Position numbers and translations under genes: made by a program. This document shows, in pieces, positions 1 to 64,000 of a stretch of 64,000 nucleotides of DNA; the stretch's first letter is position 1, and every line of letters begins with the position of its first letter. The notes below the pieces were generated by a model. It was not told where the DNA came from. It saw nothing but the letters and a program-made list of their open reading frames with translations, and did no database searches. Origin of the DNA: Psococerastis gibbosa (taxonomy: Eukaryota > Arthropoda > Insecta > Psocodea > Psocidae). The stretch is taken from positions 372,001 to 436,000 of the forward strand of contig CAXART010000009.1 in the NCBI GenBank assembly GCA_963971405.1. Direction: 5' to 3'.

Positions 1-78
1 GCAATTGCTCAATGTTAATTACAATACAATGAGCCAAAATAAGCCAAATTAAGACACCCGTGTCATATCAAGACCTTT

Positions 79-137
79 AAAAAAAATAAAATAAGTATTT
101 AGCTAATTTTCTTATTCTTGTCGAATGAATTTTTTTT
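79..137. other. A8 and T8 tracts about 51 bp apart in the monomer (representative)
   Basis: In the first monomer an A8 run lies at 79-86 and a T8 run at 130-137, with centres 51 bp apart, close to five helical turns. Nearly every monomer has both, although T8 is T6G in some types and A8-T-A4 becomes A11 or A13 in others. In-phase A/T tracts are known to bend DNA; curvature here is predicted, not shown. Confidence 0.7.
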
Positions 138-255
138 AGCAGCATTTAAACCGATGTACACGCAGGAGCAATTGTTTAATATCAAGTGCGATGCAATGAG
201 CCAAAATAAGCAAAATTAAGACACCTACATCTTTTAGAAACCTTTAAAAAAATAA

Positions 256-282
256 AATAAGTAAATAGCTATTTTTCTTATT
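256..282. other. 27-bp imperfect dyad centred on AGCT (representative)
   Basis: Outer arms aataag and cttatt are exact reverse complements, and the inner aaatagctattt is a 12-bp perfect palindrome. The outer arms are almost constant across monomers. The inner arm varies: gtatatagctattt and gtatttagctaatt keep only 8 bp of symmetry. The dyad lies about 98 bp downstream of the monomer-start palindrome. Confidence 0.7.
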
Positions 283-510: not shown

Positions 511-667
511 AATGTTAAGTACAATACAGTGAGCCAAAATAAGCAAAATTTAGACACCCGTGTCATATCAAGACCTTTAAAAAAAATAAAATAAGTATAT
601 AGCTAATTTTCTTATTCTTGTCGAATGAATTTTTTTTAGCTACATTTACACCGATGAACACGCAGGA
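501..667 (+). repeat. Hybrid junction monomer
   Basis: The left half carries acagtgagcc and aaatttagacaccc, as in the P monomer that follows cassette K elsewhere (for example 13508 and 30682). The right half then reads gtgtcatatcaagacc and gtatatagctaatttt, as in the monomer at 2672 that precedes a 668-like monomer. It therefore appears to join the K/P context to the 19-mer HOR. The exchange point is inferred near base 65-75 of the monomer. Confidence 0.65.
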
Positions 668-3600
668 GCAATTGCTCAATGTTAAGTACAATACAATGAG
701 CCAAAATAAGCCAAATTAAGACACTTGTGTCATATCAAGACCTTTAAAAAAAATAAAATAAGTATTTAGCTAATTTTCTTATTCTTGTCGAATGAATTTT
801 TTTTAGCTACATTTACACCGATGAACACGCAGGAGCAATTGTTTAATATCAAGTACGATACAATGAGCCAAAATAAGCAAAATTAAGACACCTATATCTT
901 TTTAAAACCTTTAAAAAAATAAAATAACTAAATAGCTATTTTTCTTATTCTTGTCGAATGAATTTTTTTTAGCTACATTTACACCGATGAACACGCAGGA
1001 GCAATGGCTCAATGTTAATTACAATACAATGAGCCAAAATAAGCCAAATTAAGACACCCGTGTCATATCAAGACCTTTAAAAAAAATAAAATAATTATTT
1101 AGCTAATTTTCTTATTCTTGTCGAATGAATTTTTTTTAGCTACATTTACACCGATGAACACGCAGGAACAATTGCTCAATGTTAAGTACAATACAATGAG
1201 CCAAAATAAGCCAAATTAAGACACCCGTGTCATATCAAGACCTTTAAAAAAAATAAAATAAGTATATAGCTATTTTTCGTATTCTTGTCGAATGAATTTT
1301 TTGTAGCTACATTTACACCGATGTACACGCAGGAGCAAGTGTTCAATGTTAAGTACAATACAATGAGCCTAAATAAGCAAAATTAAGACACCTATATCTT
1401 TTAAAGACCTTTAAAAAAAATAAAATAAGTAAATAGCTATTTTTCTTATTCTTGTCGAATGAATTTTTTCTAGCTACATTTACACCGATGAACACGCAGG
1501 AACAATAGCTCAATGTTAAGTACAATACAATGAGCCAAAATAAGCCAAATTTAGACACCCGTGTCATATCAAGACCTTTAAAAAAAATAAAATAAGTATA
1601 TAGCTATTTTTCGTATTCTTGTCGAATGAATTTTTTGTAGCTACAGTTACACCGATTAACACGCAGGAACAATTGCTCAATGTTAAGTACAATACAATGA
1701 GCCAAATTAAGCAAAATTAAGACACCTATATCTTTTTAAAACCTTTAAAAGAAATAAAATAAGTAAATAGCTATTTTTCTTATTCTTGTCGAATGAATTT
1801 TTTTTAGCTACATTTACACCGATGAACACGCAGGAGCAATTGCTCAATGTTAAGTACAATACAATGAGCCAAAATAAGCAAAATTAAGACACTCATATCA
1901 TATCAAGACCTTTAAAAAAAAAAATAAGTATATAGCTATTTTTCTTATTCTTGTCGAATGAATTTTTTGTAGCTACATTTACACCGATGAACACGCAGGA
2001 GCAAGTGGCCAATGTTGAGTACAATACAGTGAGCCTAAATTAGCAAAATTAAGACACCTATATCTTTATAAGACCTTTTAAAAAAATAAAATAAGTAAAT
2101 AGCTATTTTTCTTATTCTTGTCGAATGAATTTTTTTTAGCTACATTTACACCGATGAACACGCAGGAACAATTTCTCAATGTTAAGTACAATACATTGAG
2201 CCAAAATAAGCAAAATTAAGACACCTTTATCTTTTTAAAACCTTTAAAAAAAATAAAATAAGTAAATAGCTATTTTTCTTATTCTTGTCGAATGAATTTT
2301 TTTTAGCTACATTTACACCGATGAACACGCAGGAGCAATTGTTCAATGTTAAGTGCAATACAATGAGCCAAAATAAGCAAAATTAAGACACCCTTATCAT
2401 ATCAAGACCTTTAAAAAAAATAAAAAAAGTAAATAGCTATTTTTTTTATTCTTGTCGAATAAATTTTTTTTAGCAACATTTAAACCGATGTACACGCAGG
2501 AGCAATTGTTTAATATCAAGTACGATACAATGAGCCAAAATAAGCAAAATTAAGACACCTACATCTTTTAGAAACCTTTCAAAAAATAAAATAAGTAAAT
2601 AGCTATTTTTCTTATTCTTGTCGAATGAATTTTTTTTAGCTACATTTACAACGATGAACACGCAGAAGCAATTGCTCAATGTTAAGTACAATACAATGAG
2701 CCAAAATAAGCAAAATTTAGACACCCGTGTCATATCAAGACCTTTAAAAAAAATAAAATAAGTATATAGCTAATTTTCTTATTCTTGTCGAATGAATTTT
2801 TTTTAGCTACATTTACACCGATGAACACGCAGGAGCAATTGCTCAATGTTAAGTACAATACAATAAGCCAAAATAAGCCAAATTAAGACACTTGTGTCAT
2901 ATCAAGACCTTTAAAAAAAATAAAATAAGTATTTAGCTAATTTTCTTATTCTTGTCGAATGAATTTTTTTTAGCTACATTTACACCGATGAACACGCAGG
3001 AGCACAGGTTTAATATCAAGTACGATACAATGAGCCAAAATAAGCAAAATTAAGACACCTCTATCTTTTTAAAACCTTTAAAAAAATAAAATAAGTAAAT
3101 AGCTATTTTTCTTATTCTTGTCGAATGAATTTTTTTTAGCTACATTTACACCGATGAACACGCAGGAGCAGTTGCTCAATGTTAATTACAATACAATGAG
3201 CCAAAATAAGCCAAATTAAGACACCCGTGTCATATCAAGACCTTTAAAAAAAATAAAATAAGTATTTAGCTAATTTTCTTATTCTTGTCGAATGAATTTT
3301 TTTTAGCTACATTTACACCGATGAACACGCAGGAACAATTGCTCAATGTTAAGTACAATACAATGAGCCAAAATAAGCCAAATTAAGACACCCGTGTCAT
3401 ATCAAGACCTTTAAAAAAAATAAAATAAGTATATAGCTATTTTTCGTATTCTAGTCGAATGAATTTTTTGTAGCTACATTTACACCGATGTACACGCAGG
3501 AGCATATGTTCAATGTTAAGTACAATACAATGAGCCTAAATAAGCAAAATTAAGACACCTATATCTTTTAAAGACCTTTAAAAAAAATAATATAAGTAAA

Positions 3601-3837
3601 TAGCTATTTTTCTTATTCTTGTCGAATGAATTTTTTTTAGCTACATTTACACCGATGAACACGCAGGAACAATTGCTCAATGTTAAGTACAATACAATGA
3701 GCCAAATTAAGCAAAATTAAGACACCTATATCTTTTTAAAACCTTTAAAAAAAAAATAAAATAAGTAAATAGCTATTTTTCTTATTCTTGTCGAATGAAT
3801 TTTTTTTAGCTACATTTACACCGATGAACACGCAGGA
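668..3837 (+). repeat. 19-monomer higher-order repeat, copy A1 (3170 bp)
   Basis: This unit recurs immediately downstream at an offset of exactly 3170 bp. Private or rare variants include gcacaggttt at 3002, actaaatagc near 930, and an aataaattt variant near 2460. About eight substitutions and no net indel were seen against 3838-7007, so identity is near 99.7%. The monomers before 668 and after 7007 break the match, so exactly two tandem copies exist here. No gene is contained. Confidence 0.92.
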
Positions 3838-6800
3838 GCAATTGCTCAATGTTAAGTACAATACAATGAGCCAAAATAAGCCAAATTAAGACACTTGTGT
3901 CATATCAAGACCTTTAAAAAAAATAAAATAAGTATTTAGCTAATTTTCTTATTCTTGTCGAATGAATTTTTTTTAGCTACATTTACACCGATGAACACGC
4001 AGGAGCAATTGTTTAATATCAAGTACGATACAATGAGCCAAAATAAGCAAAATTAAGACACCTATATCTTTTTAAAACCTTTAAAAAAATAAAATAACTA
4101 AATAGCTATTTTTCTTATTCTTGTCGAATGAATTTTTTTTAGCTACATTTACACCGATGAACACGCAGGAGCAATGGCTCAATGTTAATTACAATACAAT
4201 GAGCCAAAATAAGCCAAATTAAGACACCCGTGTCATATCAAGACCTTTAAAAAAAATAAAATAATTATTTAGCTAATTTTCTTATTCTTGTCGAATGAAT
4301 TTTTTTTAGCTACATTTACACCGATGAACACGCAGGAACAATTGCTCAATGTTAAGTACAATACAATGAGCCAAAATAAGCCAAATTAAGACACCCGTGT
4401 CATATCAAGACCTTTAAAAAAAATAAAATAAGTATATAGCTATTTTTCGTATTCTTGTCGAATGAATTTTTTGTAGCTACATTTACACCGATGTACACGC
4501 AGGAGCAAGTGTTCAATGTTAAGTACAATACAATGAGCCTAAATAAGCAAAATTAAGACACCTATATCTTTTAAAGACCTTTAAAAAAAATAAAATAAGT
4601 AAATAGCTATTTTTCTTATTCTTGTCGAATGAATTTTTTCTAGCTACATTTACACCGATGAACACGCAGGAACAATAGCTCAATGTTAAGTACAATACAA
4701 TGAGCCAAAATAAGCCAAATTAAGACACCCGTGTCATATCAAGACCTTTAAAAAAAATAAAATAAGTATATAGCTATTTTTCGTATTCTTGTCGAATGAA
4801 TTTTTTGTAGCTACATTTACACCGATGAACACGCAGGAACAATTGCTCAATGTTAAGTACAATACAATGAGCCAAATTAAGCAAAATTAAGACACCTATA
4901 TCTTTTTAAAACCTTTAAAAGAAATAAAATAAGTAAATAGCTATTTTTCTTATTCTTGTCGAATGAATTTTTTTTAGCTACATTTACACCGATGAACACG
5001 CAGGAGCAATTGCTCAATGTTAAGTACAATACAATGAGCCAAAATAAGCAAAATTAAGACACTCATATCATATCAAGACCTTTAAAAAAAAAAATAAGTA
5101 TATAGCTATTTTTCTTATTCTTGTCGAATGAATTTTTTGTAGCTACATTTACACCGATGAACACGCAGGAGCAAGTGGCCAATGTTGAGTACAATACAGT
5201 GAGCCTAAATTAGCAAAATTAAGACACCTATATCTTTATAAGACCTTTTAAAAAAATAAAATAAGTAAATAGCTATTTTTCTTATTCTTGTCGAATGAAT
5301 TTTTTTTAGCTACATTTACACCGATGAACACGCAGGAACAATTTCTCGATGTTAAGTACAATACATTGAGCCAAAATAAGCAAAATTAGGACACCTTTGT
5401 CTTTTTAAAACCTTTAAAAAAAATAAAATAAGTAAATAGCTATTTTTCTTATTCTTGTCGAATGAATTTTTTTTAGCTACATTTACACCGATGAACACGC
5501 AGGAGCAATTGTTCAATGTTAAGTGCAATACAATGAGCCAAAATAAGCAAAATTAAGACACCCTTATCATATCAAGACCTTTAAAAAAAATAAAAAAAGT
5601 AAATAGCTATTTTTTTTATTCTTGTCGAATGAATTTTTTTTAGCAACATTTAAACCGATGTACACGCAGGAGCAATTGTTTAATATCAAGTACGATACAA
5701 TGAGCCAAAATAAGCAAAATTAAGACACCTACATCTTTTAGAAACCTTTCAAAAAATAAAATAAGTAAATAGCTATTTTTCTTATTCTTGTCGAATGAAT
5801 TTTTTTTAGCTACATTTACAACGATGAACACGCAGAAGCAATTGCTCAATGTTAAGTACAATACAATGAGCCAAAATAAGCAAAATTTAGACACCCGTGT
5901 CATATCAAGACCTTTAAAAAAAATAAAATAAGTATATAGCTAATTTTCTTATTCTTGTCGAATGAATTTTTTTTAGCTACATTTACACCGATGAACACGC
6001 AGGAGCAATTGCTCAATGTTAAGTACAATACAATAAGCCAAAATAAGCCAAATTAAGACACTTGTGTCATATCAAGACCTTTAAAAAAAATAAAATAAGT
6101 ATTTAGCTAATTTTCTTATTCTTGTCGAATGAATTTTTTTTAGCTACATTTACACCGATGAACACGCAGGAGCACAGGTTTAATATCAAGTACGATACAA
6201 TGAGCCAAAATAAGCAAAATTAAGACACCTATATCTTTTTAAAACCTTTAAAAAAATAAAATAAGTAAATAGCTATTTTTCTTATTCTTGTCGAATGAAT
6301 TTTTTTTAGCTACATTTACACCGATGAACACGCAGGAGCAGTTGCTCAATGTTAATTACAATACAATGAGCCAAAATAAGCCAAATTAAGACACCCGTGT
6401 CATATCAAGACCTTTAAAAAAAATAAAATAAGTATTTAGCTAATTTTCTTATTCTTGTCGAATGAATTTTTTTTAGCTACATTTACACCGATGAACACGC
6501 AGGAACAATTGCTCAATGTTAAGTACAATACAATGAGCCAAAACAAGCCAAATTAAGACACCCGTGTCATATCAAGACCTTTAAAAAAAATAAAATAAGT
6601 ATATAGCTATTTTTCGTATTCTAGTCGAATGAATTTTTTGTAGCTACATTTACACCGATGTACACGCAGGAGCATATGTTCAATGTTAAGTACAATACAA
6701 TGAGCCTAAATAAGCAAAATTAAGACACCTATATCTTTTAAAGACCTTTAAAAAAAATAATATAAGTAAATAGCTATTTTTCTTATTCTTGTCGAATGAA

Positions 6801-7007
6801 TTTTTTTTAGCTACATTTACACCGATGAACACGCAGGAACAATTGCTCAATGTTAAGTACAATACAATGAGCCAAATTAAGCAAAATTAAGACACCTATA
6901 TCTTTTTAAAACCTTTAAAAAAAAAATAAAATAAGTAAATAGCTATTTTTCTTATTCTTGTCGAATGAATTTTTTTTAGCTACATTTACACCGATGAACA
7001 CGCAGGA
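3838..7007 (+). repeat. 19-monomer higher-order repeat, copy A2 (3170 bp)
   Basis: Second tandem copy of the unit starting at 668. It differs by taagac at 4721 (ttagac in A1), by ctcgatg near 5347, by acctttgtc near 5398 (acctttatc in A1), by gaattt rather than aaattt near 5631, and by aaacaagcc near 6541. The acctttgtc variant is shared with the second copy of the other macro-block at about 28741, which makes it a lineage marker. The match stops at 7008. Confidence 0.92.
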
Positions 7008-7838
7008 GCAATTGCTCAATGTTAAGTACAATACAATGAGCCAAAATAAGCAAAATTAAGACACTCATATCATATCAAGACCTTTAAAAAAAAAAATAAG
7101 TATATAGCTATTTTTCTTATTCTTGTCGAATGAATTTTTTGTAGCTACATTTACACCGATGAACACGCTGGAGCAATGGCCTAATGTTAGATACAGTACG
7201 ATGAGCCAAAATAAGCAAAATAAAGACACCTATATCTTTTTAAATCCTTTAAAAAAATAAAATAAGTAAATAGCTATTTTTCTTATTCTTGTCGAATGAA
7301 TTTTTTTTAGCTACATTTACACCGATGAACACGCAGGAGCAATTGCTCAATGTTAATTACAATACAATGAGCCAAAATAAGCCAAATTAAGACACCCGTG
7401 TCATATCAAGACCTTTAAAAAAAATAAAATAAGTATTTAGCTAATTTTCTTATTCTTGTCGAATGAATTTTTTTTAGCAGCATTTAAACCGATGTACACG
7501 CAGGAGCAATTGTTTAATATCAAGTGCGATGCAATGAGCCAAAATAAGCAAAATTAAGACACCTACATCTTTTAGAAACCTTTAAAAAAATAAAATAAGT
7601 AAATAGCTATTTTTCTTATTCTTGTCGAATGAATTTTTTTTAGCTACATTTACAACGATGAACACGCAGAAGCAATTGCTCAATGTTAATTACAATACAA
7701 TGAGCCAAAATAAGCCAAATTTAGACACCCGTGTCATATCAAGACCTTTAAAAAAAAAAAAATAAGTATATAGCTAATTTTCTTATTCTTGTCGAATGAA
7801 TTTTTTTTAGCTACATTTACACCGATGAACACGCAGGA
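7008..7838 (+). repeat. Cassette K, full five-monomer copy (831 bp)
   Basis: Five monomers in fixed order. The first has actcatatcatatc with an A11 run lacking the usual T. The second begins gcaatggcctaatgttagat and has aaataaagac. The third has gttaattac. The fourth has gtttaatatcaagtgcgatg. The fifth has aaatttagacacccgtgtc. The same order and length (830-831 bp) recurs at 19346, 29851, 36520, 41850, 45682 and 56012. In this copy the P monomer that normally follows is missing. Confidence 0.85.
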
Positions 7839-10800
7839 GCAATTGCTCAATGTCACGTACAATACAATGAGCCTAAATAAGCAAAATTAAGACACCTATA
7901 TCTTTTAAAGACCTTTAAAAAAAATAAAATAAGTAAATAGCTATTTTTCTTATTCTTGTCGAATTAATTTTTTTTAGCTACATTTACACCGATGAACACG
8001 CAGGAACAATTGCTCAATGTTTAGTACAATACAATGAGCCAAAATAAGCAAAATTAAGACACCTATATCTTTTTAAAACCTTTAAAAAAAATAAAATAAG
8101 TAATTAGCTATTTTTCTTATTCTTGTCGAATGAATTTTTTTTAGCTACATTTACACCGATGAACACGCACGAGCAATTGCTCAATGTCAAGTACAATACA
8201 ATGAGCCTAAATAAGCAAAATTAAGACACCCTTATCATATCAAGACCTTTAAAAAAAATAAAAAAAGTAAATAGCTATTTTTTTTATTCTTGTCGAATGA
8301 ATTTTTTTTAGCAACATTTAAACCGATGTACACGCAGGAGCAATCGTTTAATATCAAGTACGATACAATGAGCCAAAATGAGCAAAACTAAGACACCTAC
8401 ATCTTTTAGAAACCTTTAAAAAAATAAAATAAGTAAATAGCTATTTTTCTTATTCTTGTCGAATGAATTTTTTTTAGCTACATTTACAACGAAGAACACG
8501 CAGAAGCAATTGCTCAATGTTAAGTGCAATACAATGAGCCAAAATAAGGAAAATTTAGACACCCGTGTCATATCAAGACCTTTAAAAAAAATAAAATAAG
8601 TATATAGCTAATTTTCTTATTCTTGTCGAATGAATTTTTTTTAGCTACATTTACACCGATGAACACGCAGGAGCAATTGCTCAATGTTAAGTACAATACA
8701 ATGAGCCAAAATAAGCCAAATTAAGACACTTATGTCATATCAAGACCTTTAAAAAAAAGAAAATAAGTATTTAGCTAATTTTCTTATTCTTGTCGAATGA
8801 ATTTTTATTAGCTACATTTACACCGTTGAACACGCAGGAGCAATTGTTTAATATCAAGTACGATACAATGAGCCAGAATAAGCAAAATTAAGACACCTAT
8901 ATCTTTTTAAAACCTTTAAAAAAATAAAATAAGTAAATAGCTATTTTTCTTATTCTTGTCGAATGAATTTTTTTTAGCTACATTTACACCGATGAACACG
9001 CAGGAGCAGTTGCTCAATGTTAATTACAATACAATGAGCCAAAATAAGCCAAATTAAGACACCCGTGTCATATCAAGACCTTTAAAAAAAATAAAATAAG
9101 TATTTAGCTAATTTTCTTATTCTTGTCGAATGAATTTTTTTTAGCTACATTTACACCGATGAACACGCTGGAACAATTGCTCAATGTTAAGTACAATACA
9201 ATGAGCCAAAATAAGCCAAATTAAGACACCCGTGTCATATCAAGACCTTTAAAAAAAATAAAATAAGTATATAGCTATTTTTCGTATTCTTGTCGAATGA
9301 ATTTTTTGTAGCTACATTTACACCGATGTACACGCAGGAGCAAGTGTTTAATGTTAAGTACAATACAATGAGCCTAAATAAGCAAAATTAAGACACCTAT
9401 ATCTTTTAAAGACCTTTAAAAAAAATAATATAAGTAAATAGCTATTTTTCTTATTCTTGTCGAATGAATTTTTTTTAGCTACATTTACACCGATGAACAC
9501 GCAGGAACAATTGCTCAATGTTACGTACAATACAATGAGCCAAATTAAGCAAAATTAAGACACCTATATCTTTTTAAAACCTTTAAAAAAAAATAAAATA
9601 AGTAAATAGCTATTTTTCTTATTCTTGTCGAATGAATTTTTTTTAGCTACATTTACACCGATGAACACGCAGGAGCAATTGCTCAATGTCAAGTACAATA
9701 CAATGAGCCAAAATAAGCAAAATTAAGACACTCATATCATATCAAGACCTTTAAAAAAAAAAATAAGTATATAGCTATTTTTCTTATTCTTGTCGAATGA
9801 ATTTTTTGTAGCTACATTTACACCGATGAACACGCTGGAGCAATTGCCTAATGTTAGATACAGTACAATGAGCCAAAATAAGCAAAATAAAGACACCTAT
9901 ATCTTTTTAAAACCTTTAAAAAAATAAAATAAGTAAATAGCTATTTTTCTTATTCTTGTCGAATGAATTTTTTTTAGCTACATTTACACCGATGAACACG
10001 CAGGAACAATTGCTCAATGTTAAGTACAATACAATGAGCCAAAATAAGCAAAATTAAGACACCTATATCTTTTTAATACCTTTAAAAAAAATAAAATAAG
10101 TAATTAGCTATTTTTCTTATTCTTGTCGAATGAATTTTTTTTAGCTACATTTACACCGATGAACACGCACGAGCAATTGCTCAGTGTCAAGTACAATACA
10201 ATGAGCCTAAATAAGCAAAATTAAGACACCTATATCTTTTTAAGACCTTTAAAAAAAATAAAATAAGTAAATAGCTATTTATCTTATTCTTGTCGAATGA
10301 ATTTGTTTTAGCTACATTTACACCGATGAACACGCAGGAACAATTGCTCAATGTTAAGTACAATACAATGAGCCAAAATAAGCAAAATTAAGACACCTAT
10401 ATCTTTTTAAAACCTTTAAAAAAAATAAAATAAGTAATTAGCTATTTTTCTTATTCCTGTCGAATGAATTTTTTTTAGCTACATTTACACCGATGAACAC
10501 GCAGGAACAATTGCTCAATGTTAAGTACAATACAATGAGGCAAAATAAGCAAAATTAAGACACCTATATCTTTTTAAAACCTTTAAAAAAATAAAATAAG
10601 TAAATAGCTATTTTTCCTATTCTTGTCGAATGAATTTTTTTTAGCTACATTTACACCGATGAACACGGAGGAGCAACTGCTCAATGTTAAGTACAATACA
10701 ATGAGCCAAAATAAGCCAAATTAAGACACCCGCGTCATATCAAGACCTTTAAAAAAAATAAAATAAGTATATAGCTATTTTTCGTATTCTTGTCGAATGA

Positions 10801-13340: not shown

Positions 13341-13674
13341 GCAATTGCTCAATGTTAATTACAATACAATGAGCCAAAATAAGCCAAATTTAGACACCCG
13401 TGTCATATCAAGACCTTTAAAAAAAATAAAATAAGTATATAGCTAATTTTCTTATTCTTGTCGAATGAATTTTTTTTAGCTACATTTACACCGATGAACA
13501 CGCAGGAGCAATTGCTCAATGTTAAGTACAATACAGTGAGCCAAAATAAGCAAAATTTAGACACCCAAATCATATCAAGACCTTTAAAAAAAATAATATA
13601 AGTAAATAGCTATTTTTTTTATTCTTGTCGAATGAATTTTTTTTAGCAACATTTAAACCGATGAACACGCAGGA
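13341..13674 (+). repeat. Monomer K5 and marker monomer P between T copies
   Basis: The monomer at 13341 equals the last monomer of cassette K (gttaattac, aaatttagac). The monomer at 13508 is type P (acagtgagcc, aaatttagacacccaaatc, then gcaacatttaaacc). This order, K5 then P then the tgtcacg monomer, is the standard start of block T and is also seen at 30515-30849. It marks where the second tandem copy of the unit begins. Confidence 0.8.
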
Positions 13675-44182: not shown

Positions 44183-44348
44183 CAGTTGCTCAATGTTAAT
44201 TACAATACAATGAGCCAAAATAAGCCAAATTAAGACACCCGTGTCATATCAAGACCTTTAAAAAAAATAAAATAAGTAAATAGCTATTTTTCTTATTCTT
44301 GTCGAATGAATTTTTTTTAGCTACATTTACAACGACGAACACGCAGGA
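44183..44348 (+). repeat. Hybrid monomer at the W1/W2 junction
   Basis: The left half (gcagttgctc, gttaattac, acacccgtgtc) matches 48014. The right end (acaacgacgaacacgcagga) matches the monomer preceding 40517. The exchange lies between about 44278 and 44332. The intervening taaatagctatttttc and cttgtcgaatg match neither parent exactly, since 40.47 kb has cctgttgaatg, so a third donor or a later point change is possible. Confidence 0.78.
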
Positions 44349-47300: not shown

Positions 47301-48108
47301 CGAATGAATTTTTTTTAGCAACATTTAAACCGATGTACACGCAGGAGCAATTGTTTAATATCAAGTACGATACAATGAGCCAAAATAAGCAAAACTAAGA
47401 CACCTACATCTTTTAGAAACCTTTAAAAAAATAAAATAAGTAAATAGCTATTTTTCTTATTCTTGTCGAATGAATTTTTTTTAGCTACATTTACAACGAT
47501 GAACACGCAGAAGCAATTGCTCAATGTTAAGTGCAATACAATGAGCCAAAATAAGCAAAATTTAGACACCCGTGTCATATCAAGACCTTTAAAAAAAATA
47601 AAATAAGTATATAGCTAATTTTCTTATTCTTGTCGAATGAATTTTTTTTAGCTACATTTACACCGATGAACACGCAGGAGCAATTGCTCAATGTTAAGTA
47701 CAATACTATGAGCCAAAATAAGCCAAATTAAGACACTTATGTCATATCAAGACCTTTAAAAAAAATAAAATAAGTATTTAGCTAATTTTCTTATTCTTGT
47801 CGAATGAATTTTTTTTAGCTACATTTACACCGATGAACACGCAGGAGCAATTGTTTAATATCAAGTACGATACAATGAGCCAAAATAAGCAAAATTAAGA
47901 CACCTATATCTTTTTAAAACCTTTAAAAAAATAAAATAAGTAAATAGCTATTTTTCTTATTCTTGTCGAATGAATTTTTTTTAGCTACATTTACACCGAT
48001 GAACACGCAGGAGCAGTTGCTCAATGTTAATTACAATACAATGAGCCAAAATAAGCCAAATTAAGACACCCGTGTCATATCAAGACCTTTAAAAAAAATA
48101 AAATAAGT
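44349..48108 (+). repeat. 23-monomer higher-order repeat, copy W2
   Basis: Second tandem copy of W1, sharing aaattaagtat, gcaagagc near 44842 and agctactttt near 47113. The two copies are nearly identical by eye. The match ends inside the monomer at 48014, where W1 switches to its hybrid right half. It contains K (45682-46512) and P (46513-46679). Confidence 0.88.
45682..46679 (+). repeat. Cassette K plus P monomer inside W2
   Basis: Exactly 3832 bp after the K cassette at 41850, with the same length (831 bp) and the same gtgcgatacaatg state. P begins at 46513. Confidence 0.83.
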
Positions 48109-53300: not shown

Positions 53301-54511
53301 ATGAATTTTTTTTAGCTACATTTACACCGATGAACACGCACGAGCAATTGCTCAATGTCAAGTACAATACAATGAGCCTAAATAAGCAAACTTAAGACAC
53401 CTATATCTTTTTAAGACCTTTAAAAAAAATAAAATAAGTAAATAGCTATTTTTCTTATTCTTGTCGAATGAATTTTTTTTAGCTACATTTACACCGATGA
53501 ACACGCAGGAACAATTGCTCAATGTTAAGTACAATACAATGAGCCAAAATAAGCAAAATTAAGACACCTATATCTTTTTAAAACCTTTAAAAAAAATAAA
53601 ATAAGTAATTAGCTATTTTTCTTATTCTTGTCGAATGAATTTTTTTTAGCTACATTTACACCGATGAACACGCACGAGCAATTGCTCAATGTCAAGTACA
53701 ATACAATGAGCCTAAATAAGCAAAATTAAGACACCTATATCTTTTTAAGACCTTTAAAAAAAATAAAATAAGTAAATAGCTATTTATCTTATTCTTGTCG
53801 AATGAATTTGTTTTAGCTACATTTACACCGATGAACACGCAGGAACAATTGCTCAATATTAAGTACAATACAATGAGCCAAAATAAGCAAAATTAAGACA
53901 CCTATATCTTTTTAAAACCTTTAAAAAAAATAAAATAAGTAATTAGCTATTTTTCTTATTCCTGTCGAATGAATTTTTTTTAGCTACATTTACACCGATG
54001 AACACGCAGGAACAATTGCCCAATGTTAAGTACAATACAATGAGGCAAAATAAGCAAAATTAAGACACCTATATCTTTTTAAAACCTTTAAAAAAATAAA
54101 ATAAGTAAATAGCTATTTTTCCTATTCTTGTCGAATGAATTTTTTTTAGCTACATTTACACCGATGAACACGCAGGAGCAACTGCTCAATGTTAAGTACA
54201 ATACAATGAGCCAAAATAAGCCAAATTAAGACACCCGCGTCATACCAAGACCTTTAAAAAAAATAAAATAAGTATATAGCTATTTTTCGTATTCTTGTCG
54301 AATGAATTTTTTGTAGCTACATTTACACCGATGTACACGCAGGAGCAAGTGGTCAATGTTAAGTACAATACAATGAGCCTAAATAAGCAAAATTAAGACA
54401 CCTATATCTTTTTAAGACCTTTAAAAAAAATAAAATAAGTAAATAGCTATTTTTCTTATTCCTGTCGAATGAATTTTTTTTAGCTACATTTACAACGACG
54501 AACACGCAGGA
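50348..54511 (+). repeat. 25-monomer higher-order unit (4164 bp), first copy
   Basis: Runs from the ctcattg monomer at 50348 to the next at 54512. The part 50348-52508 matches 61840-64000 at an offset of 11492. Markers are aacacaaagg near 51670, gtacaagcagg near 51335 and 52667, and tatttttgtc near 51790. A short cassette K lies at 52180-52843 with P at 52844-53009, the latter with a T7 rather than T8 run. The part 53177-54511 matches 60505-61839 at an offset of 7328. Confidence 0.83.
52180..53009 (+). repeat. Short (four-monomer) cassette K plus P
   Basis: Monomers start at 52180, 52345, 52511 and 52678, and P starts at 52844, so K is 664 bp instead of 831. The fourth and fifth K monomers are fused: left half gtttaatatcaagtgcgat with cttttagaaacc, right half agctaattttc. 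The fusion reads gtaaatagctaa here but gtatatagctaa in the short cassettes at 48681, 56843 and 58008. Confidence 0.8.
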
Positions 54512-56011
54512 ACAATAGCTCATTGTTAAGTACAATACAGTGAGCCAAAATAGGCAAAATTAAGACACCTATATCTTTTTAAAACCTTTAAAAAAAATAA
54601 AATAAGTAAATAGCTATTTTTCTTATTCTTGTCTAATGAATTTTTTTTAGCTACATTTACACCGATGAACACGCAGGAACAATTGCTCAATGTTGAGTAC
54701 AATACAATGAGCCAAAATAAGCCAAACTAAGACACCCGTGTCATATCAAGACCTTTAAAAAAAATAAAATAAGTATATAGCTATTTTTCTTATTCTTGTC
54801 GAATGAATTTTTTGTAGCTACATTTACACCGATGAACACGCTGGAGCAATTGCCTAATGTTAGATACAGTACAATGAGCCAAAATAAGCAAAATAAAGAC
54901 ACCTATATCTTTTTAAAACCTTTAAAAAAATAAAATAAGTAAATAGCTATTTTTCTTATTCTTGTCGAATGAATTTTTTTTAGCTACATTTACACCGATG
55001 AACACGCAGGAGCAATTGCTCAATGTTAATTACAATACAATAAGCCAAAATAAGCCAAATTAAGACACCCGTGTCATATCAAGACCTTTAAAAAAAATAA
55101 AATAAGTATTTAGCTAATTTTCTTATTCTTGTCGAATGAATTTTTTTTAGCAACATTTAAACCGATGTACAAGCAGGAGCAATTGTTTAATATCAAGTGC
55201 GATACAATGAGCCAAAATAAGCAAAATTAAGACACCTACATCTTTTAGAAACCTTTAAAAAAATAAAATAAGTAAATAGCTATTTTTCTTATTCTTGTCG
55301 AATAAATTTTTTTTAGCTACATTTACAACGATGAACACACAGAAGCAATTGCTCAATGTTAATTACAATACAATGAGCCAAAATAAGCCAAATTTAGACA
55401 CCCGTGTCATATCAAGACCTTTAAAAAAAATAAAATAAGTATATAGCTAATTTTCTTATTCTTGTCGAATGAATTTTTTTTAGCTACATTTACACCGATG
55501 AACACAAAGGAGCAATTGCTCAATGTTAAGTACAATACAATGAGCCAAAATAAGCAAAATTTAGACACCCAAATCATATCAAGACCTTTAAAAAAATAAT
55601 ATAAGTAAATAGCTATTTTTTTTATTTTTGTCGAATGAATTTTTTTTAGCAACATTTAAACCGATGAACACGCAGGAGCAATTGCTCAATGTCACGTACA
55701 ATACAATGAGCCTAAATAAGCAAAATTAAGACACCTATATCTTTTTAAGACCTTTAAAAAAAATAAAATAAGTAAAAAGCTATTTTTCTTATTCTTGTCG
55801 AATGAATTTTTTTTAGCTACATTTACACCGATGAACACGCAGGAACAATTGCTCAATGTTACGTACAATACAATGAGCCAAATTAAGCAAAATTAAGACA
55901 CCTATATCTTTTTAAAACCTTCAAAAAAAATAAAATAAGTAAATAGCTATTTTTCTTATTCTTGTCGAATGAATTTTTTTTAGCTACATTTACACAGATG
56001 AACACGCAGAA
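54512..56011 (+). repeat. Second copy of the right-hand unit, with a two-monomer deletion
   Basis: Matches 50348 onward, but at 54679-54845 the gttgag monomer passes directly into the gctggagc end. The gcaagtgttc and gcaattgttc monomers present at 50682-51013 and again before 62506 are missing, a loss of 332 bp. The offset to 50.3 kb changes from 4164 to 3832 at this point. Markers aacacaaagg (near 55502) and gtacaagcagg (near 55167) are retained. Confidence 0.85.
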
Positions 56012-56842
56012 GCAATTGCTCAATGTTAAGTACAATACAATGAGCCAAAATAAGCAAAATTAAGACACTCATATCATATCAAGACCTTTAAAAAAAAAAA
56101 TAAGTATATAGCTATTTTTCTTATTCTTGTCGAATGAATTTTTTGTAGCTACATTTACACAGATGAACACGCTGGAGCAATTGCCTAATGTTAGATACAG
56201 TACAATGAGCCAAAATAAGCAAAATAAAGACACCTATATCTTTTTAAAACCTTTAAAAAAATAAAATAAGTAAATAGCTATTTTTCTTATTCTTGTCGAA
56301 TGAATTTTTTTTAGCTACATTTACACCGATGAACACGCAGGAGCAATTGCTCAATGTTAATTACAATACAATGAGCCAAAATAAGCCAAATTAAGACACC
56401 CGTGTCATATCAAGACCTTTAAAAAAAATAAAATAAGTATTTAGCTAATTTTCTTATTCTTGTCGAATGAATTTTTTTTAGCAACATTTAAACCGATGTA
56501 CAAGCAGGAGCAATTGTTTAATATCAAGTGCGATACAATGAGCCAAAATAAGCAAAATTAAGACACCTACATCTTTTAGAAACCTTTAAAAAAATAAAAT
56601 AAGTAAATAGCTATTTTTCTTATTCTTGTCGAATAAATTTTTTTTAGCTACATTTACAACGATGAACACGCAGAAGCAATTGCCCAATGTTAATTACAAT
56701 ACAATGAGCCAAAATAAGCCAAATTTAGACACCCGTGTCATATCAAGACCTTTAAAAAAAATAAAATAAGTATATAGCTAATTTTCTTATTCTTGTCGAA
56801 TGAATTTTTTTTAGCTACATTTACACAGATGAACACGCAGGA
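56012..56842 (+). repeat. Cassette K, full copy (831 bp)
   Basis: Five monomers start at 56012, 56177, 56343, 56510 and 56676, with gtacaagcagg before the fourth and a gcccaatg start in the fifth. It is followed directly by another, short K at 56843 rather than by P, so two K cassettes lie back to back with an 831-bp offset between their second monomers (56177 and 57008). Confidence 0.82.
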
Positions 56843-58007
56843 GCAATTGCTCAATGTTAAGTACAATACAATGAGCCAAAATAAGCAAAATTAAGACACT
56901 CATATCATATCAAGACCTTTAAAAAAAAAAATAAGTATATAGCTATTTTTCTTATTCTTGTCGAATGAATTTTTTGTAGCTACATTTACACAGATGAACA
57001 CGCTGGAGCAATTGCCTAATGTTAGATACAGTACAATGAGCCAAAATAAGCAAAATAAAGACACCTATATCTTTTTAAAACCTTTAAAAAAATAAAATAA
57101 GTAAATAGCTATTTTTCTTATTCTTGTCGAATGAATTTTTTTTAGCTACATTTACACCGATGAACACGCAGGAGCAATTGCTCAATGTTAATTACAATAC
57201 AATGAGCCAAAATAAGCCAAATTAAGACACCCGTGTCATATCAAGACCTTTAAAAAAAATAAAATAAGTATTTAGCTAATTTTCTTATTCTTGTCGAATG
57301 AATTTTTTTTAGCAACATTTAAACCGATGTACACGCAGGAGCAATTGTTTAATATCAAGTGCGATACAATGAGCCAAAATAAGCAAAATTAAGACACCTA
57401 CATCTTTTAGAAACCTTTAAAAAAATAAAATAAGTATATAGCTAATTTTCTTATTCTTGTCGAATGAATTTTTTTTAGCTACATTTACACCGATGAACAC
57501 GCAGGAGCAATTGCTCAATATTAAGTACAATACAATGAGCCAAAATAAGCAAAATTTAGACACCCAAATCATATCAAGACCTTTAAAAAAAATAATATAA
57601 GTAAATAGCTATTTTTTTTATTCTTGTCGAATGAATTTTTTTTAGCAACATTTAAACCGATGAACACGCAGGAGCAATTGCTCAATGTCACGTACAATAC
57701 AATGAGCCTAAATAAGCAAAATTAAGACACCTATATCTTTTTAAGACCTTTAAAAAAAATAAAATAAGTAAAAAGCTATTTTTCTTATTCTTGTCGAATG
57801 AATTTTTTTTAGCTACATTTACACCGATGAACACGCAGGAACAATTGCTCAATGTTACGTACAATACAATGAGCCAAATTAAGCAAAATTAAGACACCTA
57901 TATCTTTTTAAAACCTTCAAAAAAAATAAAATAAGTAAATAGCTATTTTTCTTATTCTTGTCGAATGAATTTTTTTTAGCTACATTTACACAGATGAACA
58001 CGCAGGA
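56843..58007 (+). repeat. Seven-monomer unit (1165 bp), first copy: short K, P and two more monomers
   Basis: Short K 56843-57506, P 57507-57673, then a tgtcacg monomer (57674) and a ttacg monomer with aaaaccttcaaaa. The same order restarts at 58008 with an offset of 1165 bp (P monomers at 57507 and 58672). Both P monomers start gcaattgctcaatattaag, a marker of this cluster also present at 49347 (with gcac) and 59839. Confidence 0.85.
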
Positions 58008-59502
58008 GCAATTGCTCAATGTTAAGTACAATACAATGAGCCAAAATAAGCAAAATTAAGACACTCATATCATATCAAGACCTTTAAAAAAAAAAATAAG
58101 TATATAGCTATTTTTCTTATTCTTGTCGAATGAATTTTTTGTAGCTACATTTACACAGACGAACACGCTGGAGCAATTGCCTAATGTTAGATACAGTACA
58201 ATGAGCCAAAATAAGCAAAATAAAGACACCTATATCTTTTTAAAACCTTTAAAAAAATAAAATAAGTAAATAGCTATTTTTCTTATTCTTGTCGAATGAA
58301 TTTTTTTTAGCTACATTTACACCGATGAACACGCAGGAGCAATTGCTCAATGTTAATTACAATACAATGAGCCAAAATAAGCCAAATTAAGACACCCGTG
58401 TCATATCAAGACCTTTAAAAAAAATAAAATAAGTATTTAGCTAATTTTCTTATTCTTGTCGAATGAATTTTTTTTAGCAACATTTAAACCGATGTACACG
58501 CAGGAGCAATTGTTTAATATCAAGTGCGAAACAATGAGCCAAAATAAGCAAAATTAAGACACCTACATCTTTTAGAAACCTTTAAAAAAATAAAATAAGT
58601 ATATAGCTAATTTTCTTATTCTTGTCGAATGAATTTTTTTTAGCTACATTTACACCGATGAACACGCAGGAGCAATTGCTCAATATTAAGTACAATACAA
58701 TGAGCCAAAATAAGCAAAATTTAGACACCCAAATCATATCAAGACCTTTAAAAAAAATAATATAAATAAATAGCTATTTTTTTTATTCTTGTCGAATGAA
58801 TTTTTTTTAGCAAGATTTAAACCGATGAACACGCAGGAGCAATTGCTCAATGTCACGTACAATACAATGAGCCAAAATAAGCAAAATTAAGACACCTATA
58901 TCTTTTTAAAACCTTTAAAAAAAATAAAATAAGTAATTAGCTATTTTTCTTATTCTTGTCGAATGAATTTTTTTTAGCTACATTTACACCGATGAACACG
59001 CACGAGCAATTGCTCAATGTCAAGTACAATACAATGAGCCTAAATGAGCAAAATTAAGACACCTATATCTTTTTAAGACCTTTAAAAAAAATAAAATAAG
59101 TAAATAGCTATTTATCTTATTCTTGTCGAATGAATTTGTTTTAGCTACATTTACACCGATGAACACGCAGGAACAATTGCTCAATGTTAAGTACAATACA
59201 ATGAGCCAAAATAAGCAAAATTAAGACACCTATATCTTTTTAAAACCTTTAAAAAAAATAAAATAAGTAATTAGCTATTTTTCTTATTCCTGTCGAATGA
59301 ATTTTTTTTAGCTACATTTACACCGATGAACACGCAGGAACAATTGCTCAATGTTAAGTACAATACAATGAGGCAAAATAAGCAAAATTAAGACACCTAT
59401 ATCTTTTTAAAACCTTTAAAAAAATAAAATAAGTAAATAGCTATTTTTCCTATTCTTGTCGAATGAATTTTTTTTAGCTACATTTACACCGATGAACACG
59501 CA
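58008..59502 (+). repeat. Seven-monomer unit, second (partial) copy, running into other monomers
   Basis: Short K 58008-58671 (second monomer with cacagacgaac) and P 58672-58838 with private gtgcgaaac near 58524 and agcaagattt near 58810. The tgtcacg monomer at 58839 then switches to gccaaaataagc and ctttttaaaacc instead of gcctaaataagc, so the match to the first copy ends inside it. The gcacgagc, aacaattgc and gaggc monomers follow up to 59502. Confidence 0.8.
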
Positions 59503-60504
59503 GGAGCAATTGCTCAATGTTAATTACAATACAATGAGCCAAAATAAGCCAAATTAAGACACCCGTGTCATATCAAGACCTTTAAAAAAAATAAAATAAG
59601 TATTTAGCTAATTTTCTTATTCTTGTCGAATGAATTTTTTTTAGCAACATTTAAACCGATGTACACGCAGGAGCAATTGTTTAATATCAAGTGCGATACA
59701 ATGAGCCAAAATAAGCAAAATTAAGACACCTACATCTTTTAGAAACCTTTAAAAAAATAAAATAAGTATATAGCTAATTTTCTTATTCTTGTCGAATGAA
59801 TTTTTTTTAGCTACATTTACACCGATGAACACGCAGGAGCAATTGCTCAATATTAAGTACAATACAATGAGCCAAAATAAGCAAAATTTAGACACCCAAA
59901 TCATATCAAGACCTTTAAAAAAATAATATAAGTAAATAGCTATTTTTTTTATTTTTGTCGAATGAATTTTTTTTAGCAACATTTAAACCGATGAACACGC
60001 AGGAGCAATTGCTCATTGTCACGTACAATACAATGAGCCTAAATAAGCAAAATTAAGACACCTATATCTTTTTAAGACCTTTAAAAAAAATAAAATAAGT
60101 AAAAAGCTATTTTTCTTATTCTTGTCGAATGAATTTTTTTTAGCTACATTTACACCGATGAACACGCAGGAACAATTGCTCAATGTTAAGTACAATACAA
60201 TGAGCCAAAATAAGCAAAATTTAGACACCCAAATCATATCAAGACCTTTAAAAAAAATAATATAAGTAAATAGCTATTTTTTTTATTCTTGTCGAATGAA
60301 TTTTTTTAGCAACATTTAAACCGATGAACACGCAGGAGCAATTGCTCAATGTCAAGTACAATACAATGAGCCTAAATAAGCAAAATTAAGACACCTATAT
60401 CTTTTTAAGACCTTTAAAAAAAATAAAATAAGTAAATAGCTATTTTTCTTATTCTTGTCGAATGAATTTTTTTTAGCTACATTTACACCGATGAACACGC
60501 AGGA
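59503..60504 (+). repeat. Partial short K, P and hybrid monomers
   Basis: Monomers at 59503 and 59670 are the last two of short K. They follow a gaggc monomer ending with ttcctattc, which elsewhere precedes gcaactgctc, so a junction lies near 59503. P at 59839 has tatttttgtc. The monomer near 60172 starts as aacaattgctc but continues as aaatttagacacccaaatc, another hybrid. The next monomer has T7 (near 60300), as at 52970. Confidence 0.75.
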
Positions 60505-63500
60505 ACAATTGCTCAATGTTAAGTTCAATACAATGAGCCAAAATAAGCAAAATTAAAACACCTATATCTTTTTAAAACCTTTAAAAAAAATAAAATAAGT
60601 AATTAGCTATTTTTCATATTCTTGTCGAATGAATTTTTTTTAGCTACATTTACACCGATGAACACGCACGAGCAATTGCTCAATGTCAAGTACAATACAA
60701 TGAGCCTAAATAAGCAAACTTAAGACACCTATATCTTTTTAAGACCTTTAAAAAAAATAAAATAAGTAAATAGCTATTTTTCTTATTCTTGTCGAATGAA
60801 TTTTTTTTAGCTACATTTACACCGATGAACACGCAGGAACAATTGCTCAATGTTAAGTACAATACAATGAGCCAAAATAAGCAAAATTAAGACACCTATA
60901 TCTTTTTAAAACCTTTAAAAAAAATAAAATAAGTAATTAGCTATTTTTCTTATTCTTGTCGAATGAATTTTTTTTAGCTACATTTACACCGATGAACACG
61001 CACGAGCAATTGCTCAATGTCAAGTACAATACAATGAGCCTAAATAAGCAAAATTAAGACACCTTTATCTTTTTAAGACCTTTAAAAAAAAAAAAATAAG
61101 TAAATAGCTATTTATCTTATTCTTGTCGAATGAATTTGTTTTAGCTACATTTACACCGATGAACACGCAGGAACAATTGCTCAATATTAAGTACAATACA
61201 ATGAGCCAAAATAAGCAAAATTAAGACACCTATATCTTTTTAAAACCTTTAAAAAAAATAAAATAAGTAATTAGCTATTTTTCTTATTCCTGTCGAATGA
61301 ATTTTTTTTAGCTACATTTACACCGATGAACACGCAGGAACAATTGCCCAATGTTAAGTACAATACAATGAGGCAAAATAAGCAAAATTAAGACACCTAT
61401 ATCTTTTTAAAACCTTTAAAAAAATAAAATAAGTAAATAGCTATTTTTCCTATTCTTGTCGAATGAATTTTTTTTAGCTACATTTACACCGATGAACACG
61501 CAGGAGCAACTGCTCAATGTTAAGTACAATACAATGAGCCAAAATAAGCCAAATTAAGACACCCGCGTCATACCAAGACCTTTAAAAAAAATAAAATAAG
61601 TATATAGCTATTTTTCGTATTCTTGTCGAATGAATTTTTTGTAGCTACATTTACACCGATGTACACGCAGGAGCAAGTGGTCAATGTTAAGTACAATACA
61701 ATGAGCCTAAATAAGCAAAATTAAGACACCTATATCTTTTTAAGACCTTTAAAAAAAATAAAATAAGTAAATAGCTATTTTTCTTATTCCTGTCGAATGA
61801 ATTTTTTTTAGCTACATTTACAACGACGAACACGCAGGAACAATAGCTCATTGTTAAGTACAATACAGTGAGCCAAAATAGGCAAAATTAAGACACCTAT
61901 ATCTTTTTAAAACCTTTAAAAAAAATAAAATAAGTAAATAGCTATTTTTCTTATTCTTGTCTAATGAATTTTTTTTAGCTACATTTACACCGATGAACAC
62001 GCAGGAACAATTGCTCAATGTTGAGTACAATACAATGAGCCAAAATAAGCCAAACTAAGACACCCGTGTCATATCAAGACCTTTAAAAAAAATAAAATAA
62101 GTATATAGCTATTTTTCGTATTCTTGTCGAATGAATTTTTTGTAGCTACATTTACACCGATGTACACGCAGGAGCAAGTGTTCAATGTTAAGTACAATAC
62201 AATGAGCCTAAATAAGCAAAATTAAGACACCTATATCTTTTAAAGACCTTTAAAAAAAATAAAATAAGTAAATAGCTATTTTTCTTATTCTTGTCGAATG
62301 AATTTTTTTTAGCTACATTTACACCGATGAACACGCAGGAGCAATTGTTCAATGTTAAGTACAATACAATGAGCCAAAATAAGCAAAATTAAGACACTCA
62401 TATCATATCAAGACCTTTAAAAAAAAAAATAAGTATATAGCTATTTTTCTTATTCTTGTCGAATGAATTTTTTGTAGCTACATTTACACCGATGAACACG
62501 CTGGAGCAATTGCCTAATGTTAGATACAGTACAATGAGCCAAAATAAGCAAAATAAAGACACCTATATCTTTTTAAAACCTTTAAAAAAATAAAATAAGT
62601 AAATAGCTATTTTTCTTATTCTTGTCGAATGAATTTTTTTTAGCTACATTTACACCGATGAACACGCAGGAGCAATTGCTCAATGTTAATTACAATACAA
62701 TAAGCCAAAATAAGCCAAATTAAGACACCCGTGTCATATCAAGACCTTTAAAAAAAATAAAATAAGTATTTAGCTAATTTTCTTATTCTTGTCGAATGAA
62801 TTTTTTTTAGCAACATTTAAACCGATGTACAAGCAGGAGCAATTGTTTAATATCAAGTGCGATACAATGAGCCAAAATAAGCAAAATTAAGACACCTACA
62901 TCTTTTAGAAACCTTTAAAAAAATAAAATAAGTAAATAGCTATTTTTCTTATTCTTGTCGAATAAATTTTTTTTAGCTACATTTACAACGATGAACACAC
63001 AGAAGCAATTGCTCAATGTTAATTACAATACAATGAGCCAAAATAAGCCAAATTTAGACACCCGTGTCATATCAAGACCTTTAAAAAAAATAAAATAAGT
63101 ATATAGCTAATTTTCTTATTCTTGTCGAATGAATTTTTTTTAGCTACATTTACACCGATGAACACAAAGGAGCAATTGCCCAATGTTAAGTACAATACAA
63201 TGAGCCAAAATAAGCAAAATTTAGACACCCAAATCATATCAAGACCTTTAAAAAAATAATATAAGTAAATAGCTATTTTTTTTATTTTTGTCGAATGAAT
63301 TTTTTTTAGCAACATTTAAACCGATGAACACGCAGGAGCAATTGCTCAATGTCACGTACAATACAATGAGCCTAAATAAGCAAAATTAAGACACCTATAT
63401 CTTTTTAAGACCTTTAAAAAAAATAAAATAAGTAAAAAGCTATTTTTCTTATTCTTGTCGAATGAATTTTTTTTAGCTACATTTACACCGATGAACACGC

Positions 63501-64000
63501 AGGAACAATTGCTCAATGTTACGTACAATACAATGAGCCAAATTAAGCAAAATTAAGACACCTATATCTTTTTAAAACCTTCAAAAAAAATAAAATAAGT
63601 AAATAGCTATTTTTCTTATTCTTGTCGAATGAATTTTTTTTAGCTACATTTACACAGATGAACACGCAGAAGCAATTGCTCAATGTTAAGTACAATACAA
63701 TGAGCCAAAATAAGCAAAATTAAGACACTCATATCATATCAAGACCTTTAAAAAAAAAAATAAGTATATAGCTATTTTTCTTATTCTTGTCGAATGAATT
63801 TTTTGTAGCTACATTTACACAGATGAACACGCTGGAGCAATTGCCTAATGTTAGATACAGTACAATGAGCCAAAATAAGCAAAATAAAGACACCTATATC
63901 TTTTTAAAACCTTTAAAAAAATAAAATAAGTAAATAGCTATTTTTCTTATTCATGTCGAATGAATTTTTTTTAGCTACATTTACACCGATGAACACGCAG
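60505..64000 (+). repeat. Third copy of the right-hand unit, cut by the window end
   Basis: The part 60505-61839 matches 53177-54511 (offset 7328) and 61840-64000 matches 50348-52508 (offset 11492). The two monomers deleted near 54.8 kb are present here. An A13 run near 61084 replaces A8-T-A4. The first two K monomers begin at 63672 and 63837, and the window ends in the third. The last bases, aacacgcag, are mid-array. Confidence 0.85.

What the first reader, a model, noticed from the sequence alone, without database searches (positions are those of the whole stretch)
1..64000. Unrecognised 167-bp satellite with multi-level higher-order repeats
The sequence directly shows about 384 monomers in one orientation with no insertion of other DNA, organised at 6-, 7-, 19-, 23-, 25- and 35-monomer levels and a 23-kb level. 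HORs of this depth are best known from primate alpha satellite. I do not recognise this family. A period equal to chromatosome length (about 167 bp) and the lack of transposon insertions suggest a homogenised, active centromere core rather than old flanking heterochromatin, which is inference.
Basis: partly seen in the sequence, partly recalled or inferred. Interest (0 to 1): 0.75.

Follow-up and report, generated by a model that had tools for sequence, protein, structure and literature searches.

The report
Barkfly telomere-side satellite, not a centromere
This is a stretch of the abundant repetitive "satellite" DNA of a barkfly; it mostly forms large blocks near chromosome ends in an insect reported to have no single centromeres, so the pattern is real but is best read as ordinary heterochromatin rather than an active centromere.

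Summary
The window is one uninterrupted head-to-tail array of a 71% AT, ~167-bp satellite: 384 anchors, all on one strand. Offsets of 19, 23, 35 and 138-140 monomers (23 kb) are real; the copies are 99.7-99.9% identical. They are local two- or three-copy segment duplications, not a fixed higher-order unit: 15 other stretches of the contig have 11 different leading offsets, though 19 and 15 recur.
The window lies in a 973-kb contig of a 409,210,807-bp genome that matches the barkfly Psococerastis gibbosa. At least 96,461 monomers (~16 Mb, ~4%) occur genome-wide. A partial map shows blocks on 9 of 10 chromosome-size contigs: at or near one end on seven, interior only on two; none seen on chromosome 1. 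One array abuts (TTAGG)n directly.
Barklice are reported as holokinetic, and this species as having small terminal AT-rich C-bands. Best reading: terminal heterochromatin homogenised locally. The active-centromere reading is not supported; kinetochore data are lacking, and my CenH3 and CENP-C searches are inconclusive.

The parts
1..64000 (+). uninterrupted head-to-tail array of a ~167-bp, 71% AT satellite monomer (384 anchors); no coding or RNA feature recognised
   Evidence: the 7 ORFs of 80 aa or more recur with the duplications; Rfam search of 1-6000 found nothing
114..279 (+). example monomer (first whole one by the anchor used here, 166 bp); the consensus is 167 bp
614..6953 (+). 19-monomer tandem duplication (614-3783 and 3784-6953), 99.72% identical
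7785..19122 (+). 35-monomer-offset duplication (7785-13286 and 13621-19122), 99.84%; a third copy at 30795-36296 (99.87% to the first)
614..40964 (+). 23-kb level duplication: 614-6283 matches 23958-29627 (offset 23,344 bp, 99.82%) and 7785-13286 matches 30795-36296 (offset 23,010 bp)
13287..40964 (+). 63-monomer block 13287-23790 repeated at about 30461-40963 (offset 103 monomers, 17,174 bp, 99.83%)
40463..47958 (+). 23-monomer-offset duplication (40463-44127 and 44295-47958), 99.92%
49627..63948 (+). 17-monomer block 49627-52456 repeated 69 monomers later at 61119-63948, 99.72%

Best explanation
The window is part of an abundant AT-rich heterochromatic satellite of the barkfly Psococerastis gibbosa. 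The satellite forms blocks up to megabases long, mostly at or near chromosome ends, plus some interior blocks, on chromosomes reported as holokinetic. It is probably the DNA of the small terminal AT-rich C-bands described in this species. Shown here: sequence, single orientation in the window, a partial map of locations, copy number, local 99.7-99.9% duplications, block-specific variants. Inferred: the layered pattern arises because tandem arrays keep exchanging unequally with themselves, duplicating segments of varying length (offsets from 9 to about 140 monomers seen) within one block, with little exchange between chromosomes. Inferred function: structural, repeat-packed silent chromatin that buffers chromosome ends; no localised centromere role is needed.
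For: Host: genome of 409,210,807 bp whose ten chromosome-size contigs agree with the published lengths, one off by 0.01 Mb, and whose 17,084-bp contig carries frames that I recognise by eye as COX1, COX2 and COX3, against the published 409.21 Mb and 17.08 kb mitochondrion. Abundance: 96,461 matches to a 24-base core with up to 2 mismatches, 0 for the reversed control. Position: C3 begins with (CCTAA)n that passes straight into the satellite between 9.0 and 10.16 kb; left ends of C2, C13, C14, C20 and right parts of C19, C21. Same polarity relative to the nearer end on C2, C3, C13, C14 and C19, except that the first 400 bases of C14 are reversed; of two C20 samples one agrees and one does not; C21 has both strands. 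Local homogenisation: 11 different leading offsets in 15 stretches; one variant is on C2 1.25-1.35 Mb in 27 of 27 listed places, another on C4, C5, C6, C8 or C11 in 72 of 73 (100 of 102 listed). Literature: terminal AT-rich C-heterochromatin in P. gibbosa (PMC8490342 section 10); holokinetic chromosomes in the order (PMC6910881 passages).
Against: Not all blocks are terminal: C12 about 18.79-21.01 Mb, C14 about 11.60-12.61 Mb, C15 about 27.10-27.30 Mb. On the partial map most chromosomes show one block, which by itself would also fit centromeres. Some offsets recur between stretches: 19 is among the three longest in 6 of 15, 15 in 5 of 15, which hints at an older shared unit. The review says the species has a 'small amount' of C-heterochromatin in 'tiny blocks', while I count about 16 Mb. 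No FISH or chromatin data link this sequence to the C-bands. The telomere join was read on one array only. Placement of repeat blocks depends on Hi-C scaffolding of a 427-contig assembly.
Confidence: 0.8

Rival explanations
1. Localised centromere: the array is the active core of a conventional centromere with CenH3 nucleosomes, as in primate alpha satellite.
For: Near-nucleosomal period, strong homogenisation, few insertions; on the partial map most chromosome-size contigs show one block, terminal or interior.
Against: The order is described as holokinetic. CenH3 was not found in lice or Hemiptera by others (PMC4359364 passages); an H3 search here showed canonical H3 and pieces like it, inconclusive. 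Chromosome 1 shows no block in seven pattern searches (five of the lists capped) and chromosome 6 at least two. No full CENP-B box. No fixed higher-order unit.
Confidence: 0.07
2. Kinetochore-competent silent chromatin: in a holocentric insect without CenH3 the kinetochore settles on low-turnover chromatin, so these blocks carry much of the kinetochore activity, perhaps above all in meiosis when chromosome ends lead.
For: In Bombyx kinetochore proteins occupy broad regions of low chromatin turnover (PMC9089191 passages); blocks here are mostly at or near ends. A plant holocentromere made of a few megabase satellite arrays exists (PMC10264360 abstract).
Against: I saw no kinetochore data from any barklouse; blocks are too few to span the chromosomes, and chromosome 1 shows none. 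The Chionographis arrays are 7-11 per chromatid and CENH3-positive.
Confidence: 0.1
3. Assembly effect: the 23-kb and other long duplications, or the interior blocks, are errors of assembling and scaffolding a repeat.
For: The contig is not part of a chromosome-size contig, has a length that is a multiple of 1000 and ends inside the satellite; the C21 array changes strand between 9.8 and 10.4 Mb.
Against: The seven block pairs compared differ at 2-17 bases each rather than being identical; the assembly is HiFi with primary QV 60.4; collinear runs of 5-24 monomers occur at the leading offset of each of 15 other stretches of the contig.
Confidence: 0.03

Closest known systems
169-bp subtelomeric satellite of the Myzus persicae aphid group (Spence et al. 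1998, cited in PMC12241859 and PMC4296714; passages seen)
   Same: Nucleosome-length satellite in subtelomeric heterochromatin of many chromosomes of a holocentric paraneopteran insect
   Different: Sequence not compared (not available here); [quoted passage not shown]
Primate alpha satellite with higher-order repeats (recalled)
   Same: Near-nucleosomal monomer, megabase arrays, chromosome-specific variants
   Different: No fixed n-mer unit in many tandem copies, no full CENP-B box, host reported as holokinetic
Chionographis japonica satellite holocentromere units (PMC10264360, abstract and outline seen)
   Same: Megabase satellite blocks on holocentric chromosomes
   Different: 23- and 28-bp monomers, 7-11 evenly spaced CENH3-positive units per chromatid
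Prunus 166-bp centromere-associated repeat (PMC9028240 passages)
   Same: Nearly the same period
   Different: Plant, centromeric by FISH; sequences not compared

Membership tests
Subtelomeric heterochromatin satellite | tandem head-to-tail array of long monomers | tested here: met
   384 anchors, one strand
Subtelomeric heterochromatin satellite | array next to the telomere repeat | tested here: met
   C3: (CCTAA)n passes directly into the satellite; for the other arrays the join was not read. C19 has other DNA at 22 kb from its end and satellite at 62 kb
Subtelomeric heterochromatin satellite | present at ends of most chromosomes | tested here: met
   at or near one end of 7 of 10 chromosome-size contigs (C2, C3, C13, C14, C19, C20, C21); seen in the interior only on C12 and C15; none seen on C1 (partial map)
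Subtelomeric heterochromatin satellite | lies in C-banded chromatin | not testable with these tools
   published C-bands of this species are terminal and AT-rich, but no FISH with this monomer
Regional (CenH3) centromere satellite | CenH3 occupancy | not testable with these tools
   no chromatin data
Regional (CenH3) centromere satellite | host has CenH3 and CENP-C genes | tested here: inconclusive
   H3 query: 22 matches, canonical H3 and pieces like it; 9 weaker places fetched, three pieces at C15:25.77 Mb not fetched, and one place at C19:8.26 Mb (56%, no stop) is too short to judge. CENP-C_C: 0 matches, but the positive control Ndc80 was not found either, so that absence proves nothing
Regional (CenH3) centromere satellite | one site on every chromosome | tested here: not met
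   at least two blocks on C14; none seen on C1 in seven pattern searches (lists complete; capped at 100) nor in ten sampled places on C1. A C1 block missing from the assembly is not excluded
Regional (CenH3) centromere satellite | CENP-B box (where present) | tested here: not met
   0 of 1299 monomers reach 9 of 9; 8 in 3 of 1299 against 2 of 300 shuffled; 7 in 287 of 1299 against 24 of 300 shuffled, so near-matches are commoner than by chance (motif recalled)
Alpha-satellite-type higher-order repeat | a fixed n-mer repeated many times in tandem through the array | tested here: not met
   the long window duplications have 2-3 copies; 11 different leading offsets in 15 sampled stretches, although 24 leads in three, 19 and 17 in two each, and 19 is among the top three in 6 of 15

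The most novel reading that the evidence does not exclude
In a holocentric insect lineage with no described CenH3, a few megabase satellite blocks, mostly at one chromosome end, act as the preferred kinetochore platforms in meiosis, making them a satellite-based centromere without CenH3 and a possible drive element.
Probability: 0.06. Interest if true: 0.75.

Novelty: new member of a known kind. Interest (0 to 1): 0.3.

Why it matters
It gives a candidate molecular identity for the terminal AT-rich heterochromatin described in this barkfly in 2004, a possible FISH marker for a group whose chromosomes are hard to tell apart, and an assembled example of how satellite blocks homogenise when no single centromere seems to be involved. 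It also warns that a near-nucleosomal period plus HOR-like layering is not by itself evidence of a centromere.

Tried and rejected
Searches for a known relative led nowhere: viral contigs 0 matches; phages two 51-base matches at 83% and plasmids none; bacterial and archaeal contigs one match without a 167-bp array; a literature search for six 13-base pieces of the monomer listed two papers whose titles are unrelated. Paper searches for a barklouse satellite (in one search only 15 of 538 papers were shown) and for 167-bp centromeric satellites, with a further HOR search, showed none for this order; listings only, in an open-access library. Passages of three papers that mention 167 bp gave no match. 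Coding potential rejected: the 7 ORFs of 80 aa or more (longest 87 aa) recur with the duplications. A full CENP-B box rejected. A one-block-per-chromosome reading was considered after and rejected. CENP-C absence is not used as evidence, because Ndc80, which should be present, was not found either.
Full report
WHAT IS THERE. The window is a single satellite array. An anchor search (up to 5 errors) finds 384 monomers on the + strand and none on the - strand. All 383 spacings lie between 164 and 170 bp, and TRF reports one array from base 1 to 64000. G+C is 28-29% throughout. In the alignment of 383 monomers the mean pairwise identity is 91.3%, 153 sequences are distinct, and at least three quarters of the monomers have an identical partner over the columns used. 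The 7 ORFs of 80 aa or more, 82-87 aa long, recur with the duplications; Rfam finds nothing in 1-6000.

HIGHER-ORDER STRUCTURE. Monomer-by-monomer comparison, single misses allowed, shows long collinear duplicates: 63 monomers at offset 103 (17.2 kb), 34 at offset 140 and 33 at offset 138 (23.3 and 23.0 kb), 33 at offset 35, 22 at offset 23 and 19 at offset 19. The longest strict run after shuffling monomer order was 4 in 50 trials. Base-level identities of seven pairs are 99.72-99.92%. Offsets 19, 23, 35, 103, 138, 140 and 159 stand far above 300 shuffles; 6 is weak; 7 and 25 are not enriched across the window. The '23-kb level' reads roughly as one duplication of 614-23790 into 23958-40964, the second copy having one 35-monomer segment fewer (inference from the offsets).

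WHERE IT LIES. The window is C16:372001-436000 of a 409,210,807-bp genome. C16 is 973,000 bp. It begins with about 1.87 kb of other DNA holding a GIY-YIG domain frame (Pfam E 2.5e-5) and a 410-aa frame without a Pfam match at 0.01, reverse-transcriptase-like by eye (Penelope-like by recall of this pairing), then satellite on +; the last stretch fetched ends in satellite at the last base. All 15 ten-kilobase stretches of C16 that I fetched are + oriented satellite; the first also holds the flank. One ~450-bp foreign insert, which looks by eye like a LINE fragment, sits near C16:506.8 kb; a few monomers in three further stretches are shortened or lengthened.

HOST. The 17,084-bp contig carries frames that I recognise as COX1, COX2 and COX3 and fits the published 17.08-kb mitochondrion. 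Contig order suggests that C4-C11 are unlocalised pieces of chromosome 3 and C16-C18 of chromosome 7; this is inference.

GENOME-WIDE. A 24-base core with up to 2 mismatches matches 54,587 + 41,874 = 96,461 times, and the reversed-pattern control 0 times. At 167 bp each this is about 16.1 Mb, 3.9% of the assembly, a lower bound. Sampled places and rare-variant patterns give a partial map; blocks without those variants would be missed. C2: left end to at least 1.35 Mb. C3: left, joined directly to (CCTAA)n, satellite also at 100 and 300 kb, not at 1 Mb. C13: left (50 kb yes, 200 kb no). C14: left to at least 0.91 Mb (1 Mb no), and interior about 11.60-12.61 Mb. C20 (X): left (50 kb yes, 200 kb no). 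C19: right, about 34.14 Mb to 62 kb from the end (22 kb no). C21 ('Y'): about 6.08 Mb to 22 kb from the end; 10 of 10 samples from 6.2 to 11.6 Mb are satellite, 0 of 10 from 0.2 to 5.6 Mb. C12: interior about 18.79-21.01 Mb. C15: interior about 27.10-27.30 Mb. C1 never appeared in seven pattern searches. Two of them listed every hit (51 of 51; 56 of 56); the other five listed 100 places in what looks like contig order, but one search lists 40 places on C2 and then C3 although C2 holds more, so the order is not fully clear. Ten places sampled on C1 held no satellite. Sampled points about 20 and 60 kb from the opposite (right) ends of C2, C3, C13, C14 and C20 held none either. The first 400 bases of C12 and C19 read N.

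HOW IT CHANGES. Within C16, monomers of the stretches at 362, 436, 700, 800 and 900 kb have exact copies in the window in 53-80% of cases. The six stretches from 0 to 260 kb and the one at 600 kb have none; those at 300, 500 and 963 kb have 5-11%. The 15 stretches have 11 different leading duplication offsets. Against a purely random picture, 24 leads in three, 19 and 17 in two each, and 19 is among the top three offsets in 6 of 15, 15 in 5 of 15, so an older 15- or 19-monomer unit may show through. One rare variant was confined to C2 in 27 of 27 listed places and another to C4, C5, C6, C8 or C11 in 72 of 73 (100 of 102 places listed). This is what recurrent unequal exchange and segment duplication inside each block would give, with little traffic between chromosomes (inference). 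Mean identity within C16 (91.0%) is hardly above that to other contigs (87.5-91.1%, 2-11 monomers each), so the family is shared and only recent copies are local.

WHY NOT A CENTROMERE. The order is described as holokinetic, without primary constrictions (PMC6910881 passages). In P. gibbosa itself C-banding gave tiny terminal AT-rich blocks (PMC8490342, section 10 read whole). CenH3 was not found in lice or Hemiptera by Drinnenberg et al. (PMC4359364 passages); that paper does not mention Psocoptera or Psocodea. In this genome an H3 query gave 22 matches: canonical H3 four times at C19:8-74 kb, further near-canonical copies or exons, and weaker pieces. I fetched nine of the partial or weaker places: those on C12 and C20 match canonical H3 closely; the others show gaps, stops or frame breaks, and one at C19:8.26 Mb (56%, a 4-residue gap, no stop) is too short to judge; three pieces at C15:25.77 Mb were not fetched. 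Introns or strong divergence could hide a CenH3. CENP-C_C gave nothing, but Ndc80 gave nothing either, so that test has no power. At least two blocks on chromosome 6 and none seen on chromosome 1 also fit a centromere poorly. Against my reading: on the partial map most chromosomes have one block, three blocks are interior, and monomers with 7 of 9 CENP-B box positions are commoner than in shuffles (287 of 1299 against 24 of 300).

MECHANISM. Most likely: repeat-packed silent chromatin at chromosome ends, maintained by unequal exchange in each block. Shown: sequence, partial map, local duplication, block-specific variants. Inferred: heterochromatin state, identity with the C-bands, structural role.

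NOVELTY. I found no published satellite for this order in the searches made (listings, open-access library only). The kind is known: the 169-bp subtelomeric repeat of Myzus persicae is the nearest analogue by position and length (passages).

Noticed in passing
G000:C21 (chromosome 'Y', 12.03 Mb), 6.1-12.0 Mb: About half of the scaffold called Y appears to be this satellite (10 of 10 samples from 6.2 to 11.6 Mb, 0 of 10 from 0.2 to 5.6 Mb), with a strand change between 9.8 and 10.4 Mb. Published cytology gives males of this species as 2n = 16 + X(0) (PMC6910881 passages), so the 'Y' may be a neo-Y, a B-like element, a population difference or a scaffolding product.
   Followed up: partly
G000:C12 18.79-21.01 Mb; C14 11.60-12.61 Mb; C15 27.10-27.30 Mb: Large interior blocks of the mostly terminal satellite, possibly footprints of chromosome fusion or scaffolding errors.
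   Followed up: partly
L010 (G000:C16:1-1870): The array's edge looks like a Penelope-like pair: a GIY-YIG frame on + (Pfam) and an RT-like (by eye) 410-aa frame on -.
   Followed up: partly
L019 6796-7416 (G000:C16 about 506.8 kb): A foreign insert of about 450 bp in one monomer, LINE-like by eye, apparently flanked by a short duplication of the target.
   Followed up: no
G000:C19 8-100 kb: Four canonical H3 genes, with 28S rDNA-like sequence at 100 kb by eye, at the chromosome 8 end opposite to its satellite block.
   Followed up: no
starts of C21, C24, C27, C40: A shared degenerate telomere-like repeat (CTAACCTAACCCAATGTAACC...) at the start of the 'Y' and of several small contigs.
   Followed up: no
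G000:C15 1-10 kb: The contig starts with degenerate AACTT repeats, while the sample at 10 kb begins with at least 60 bases of (AACCT)n.
   Followed up: no
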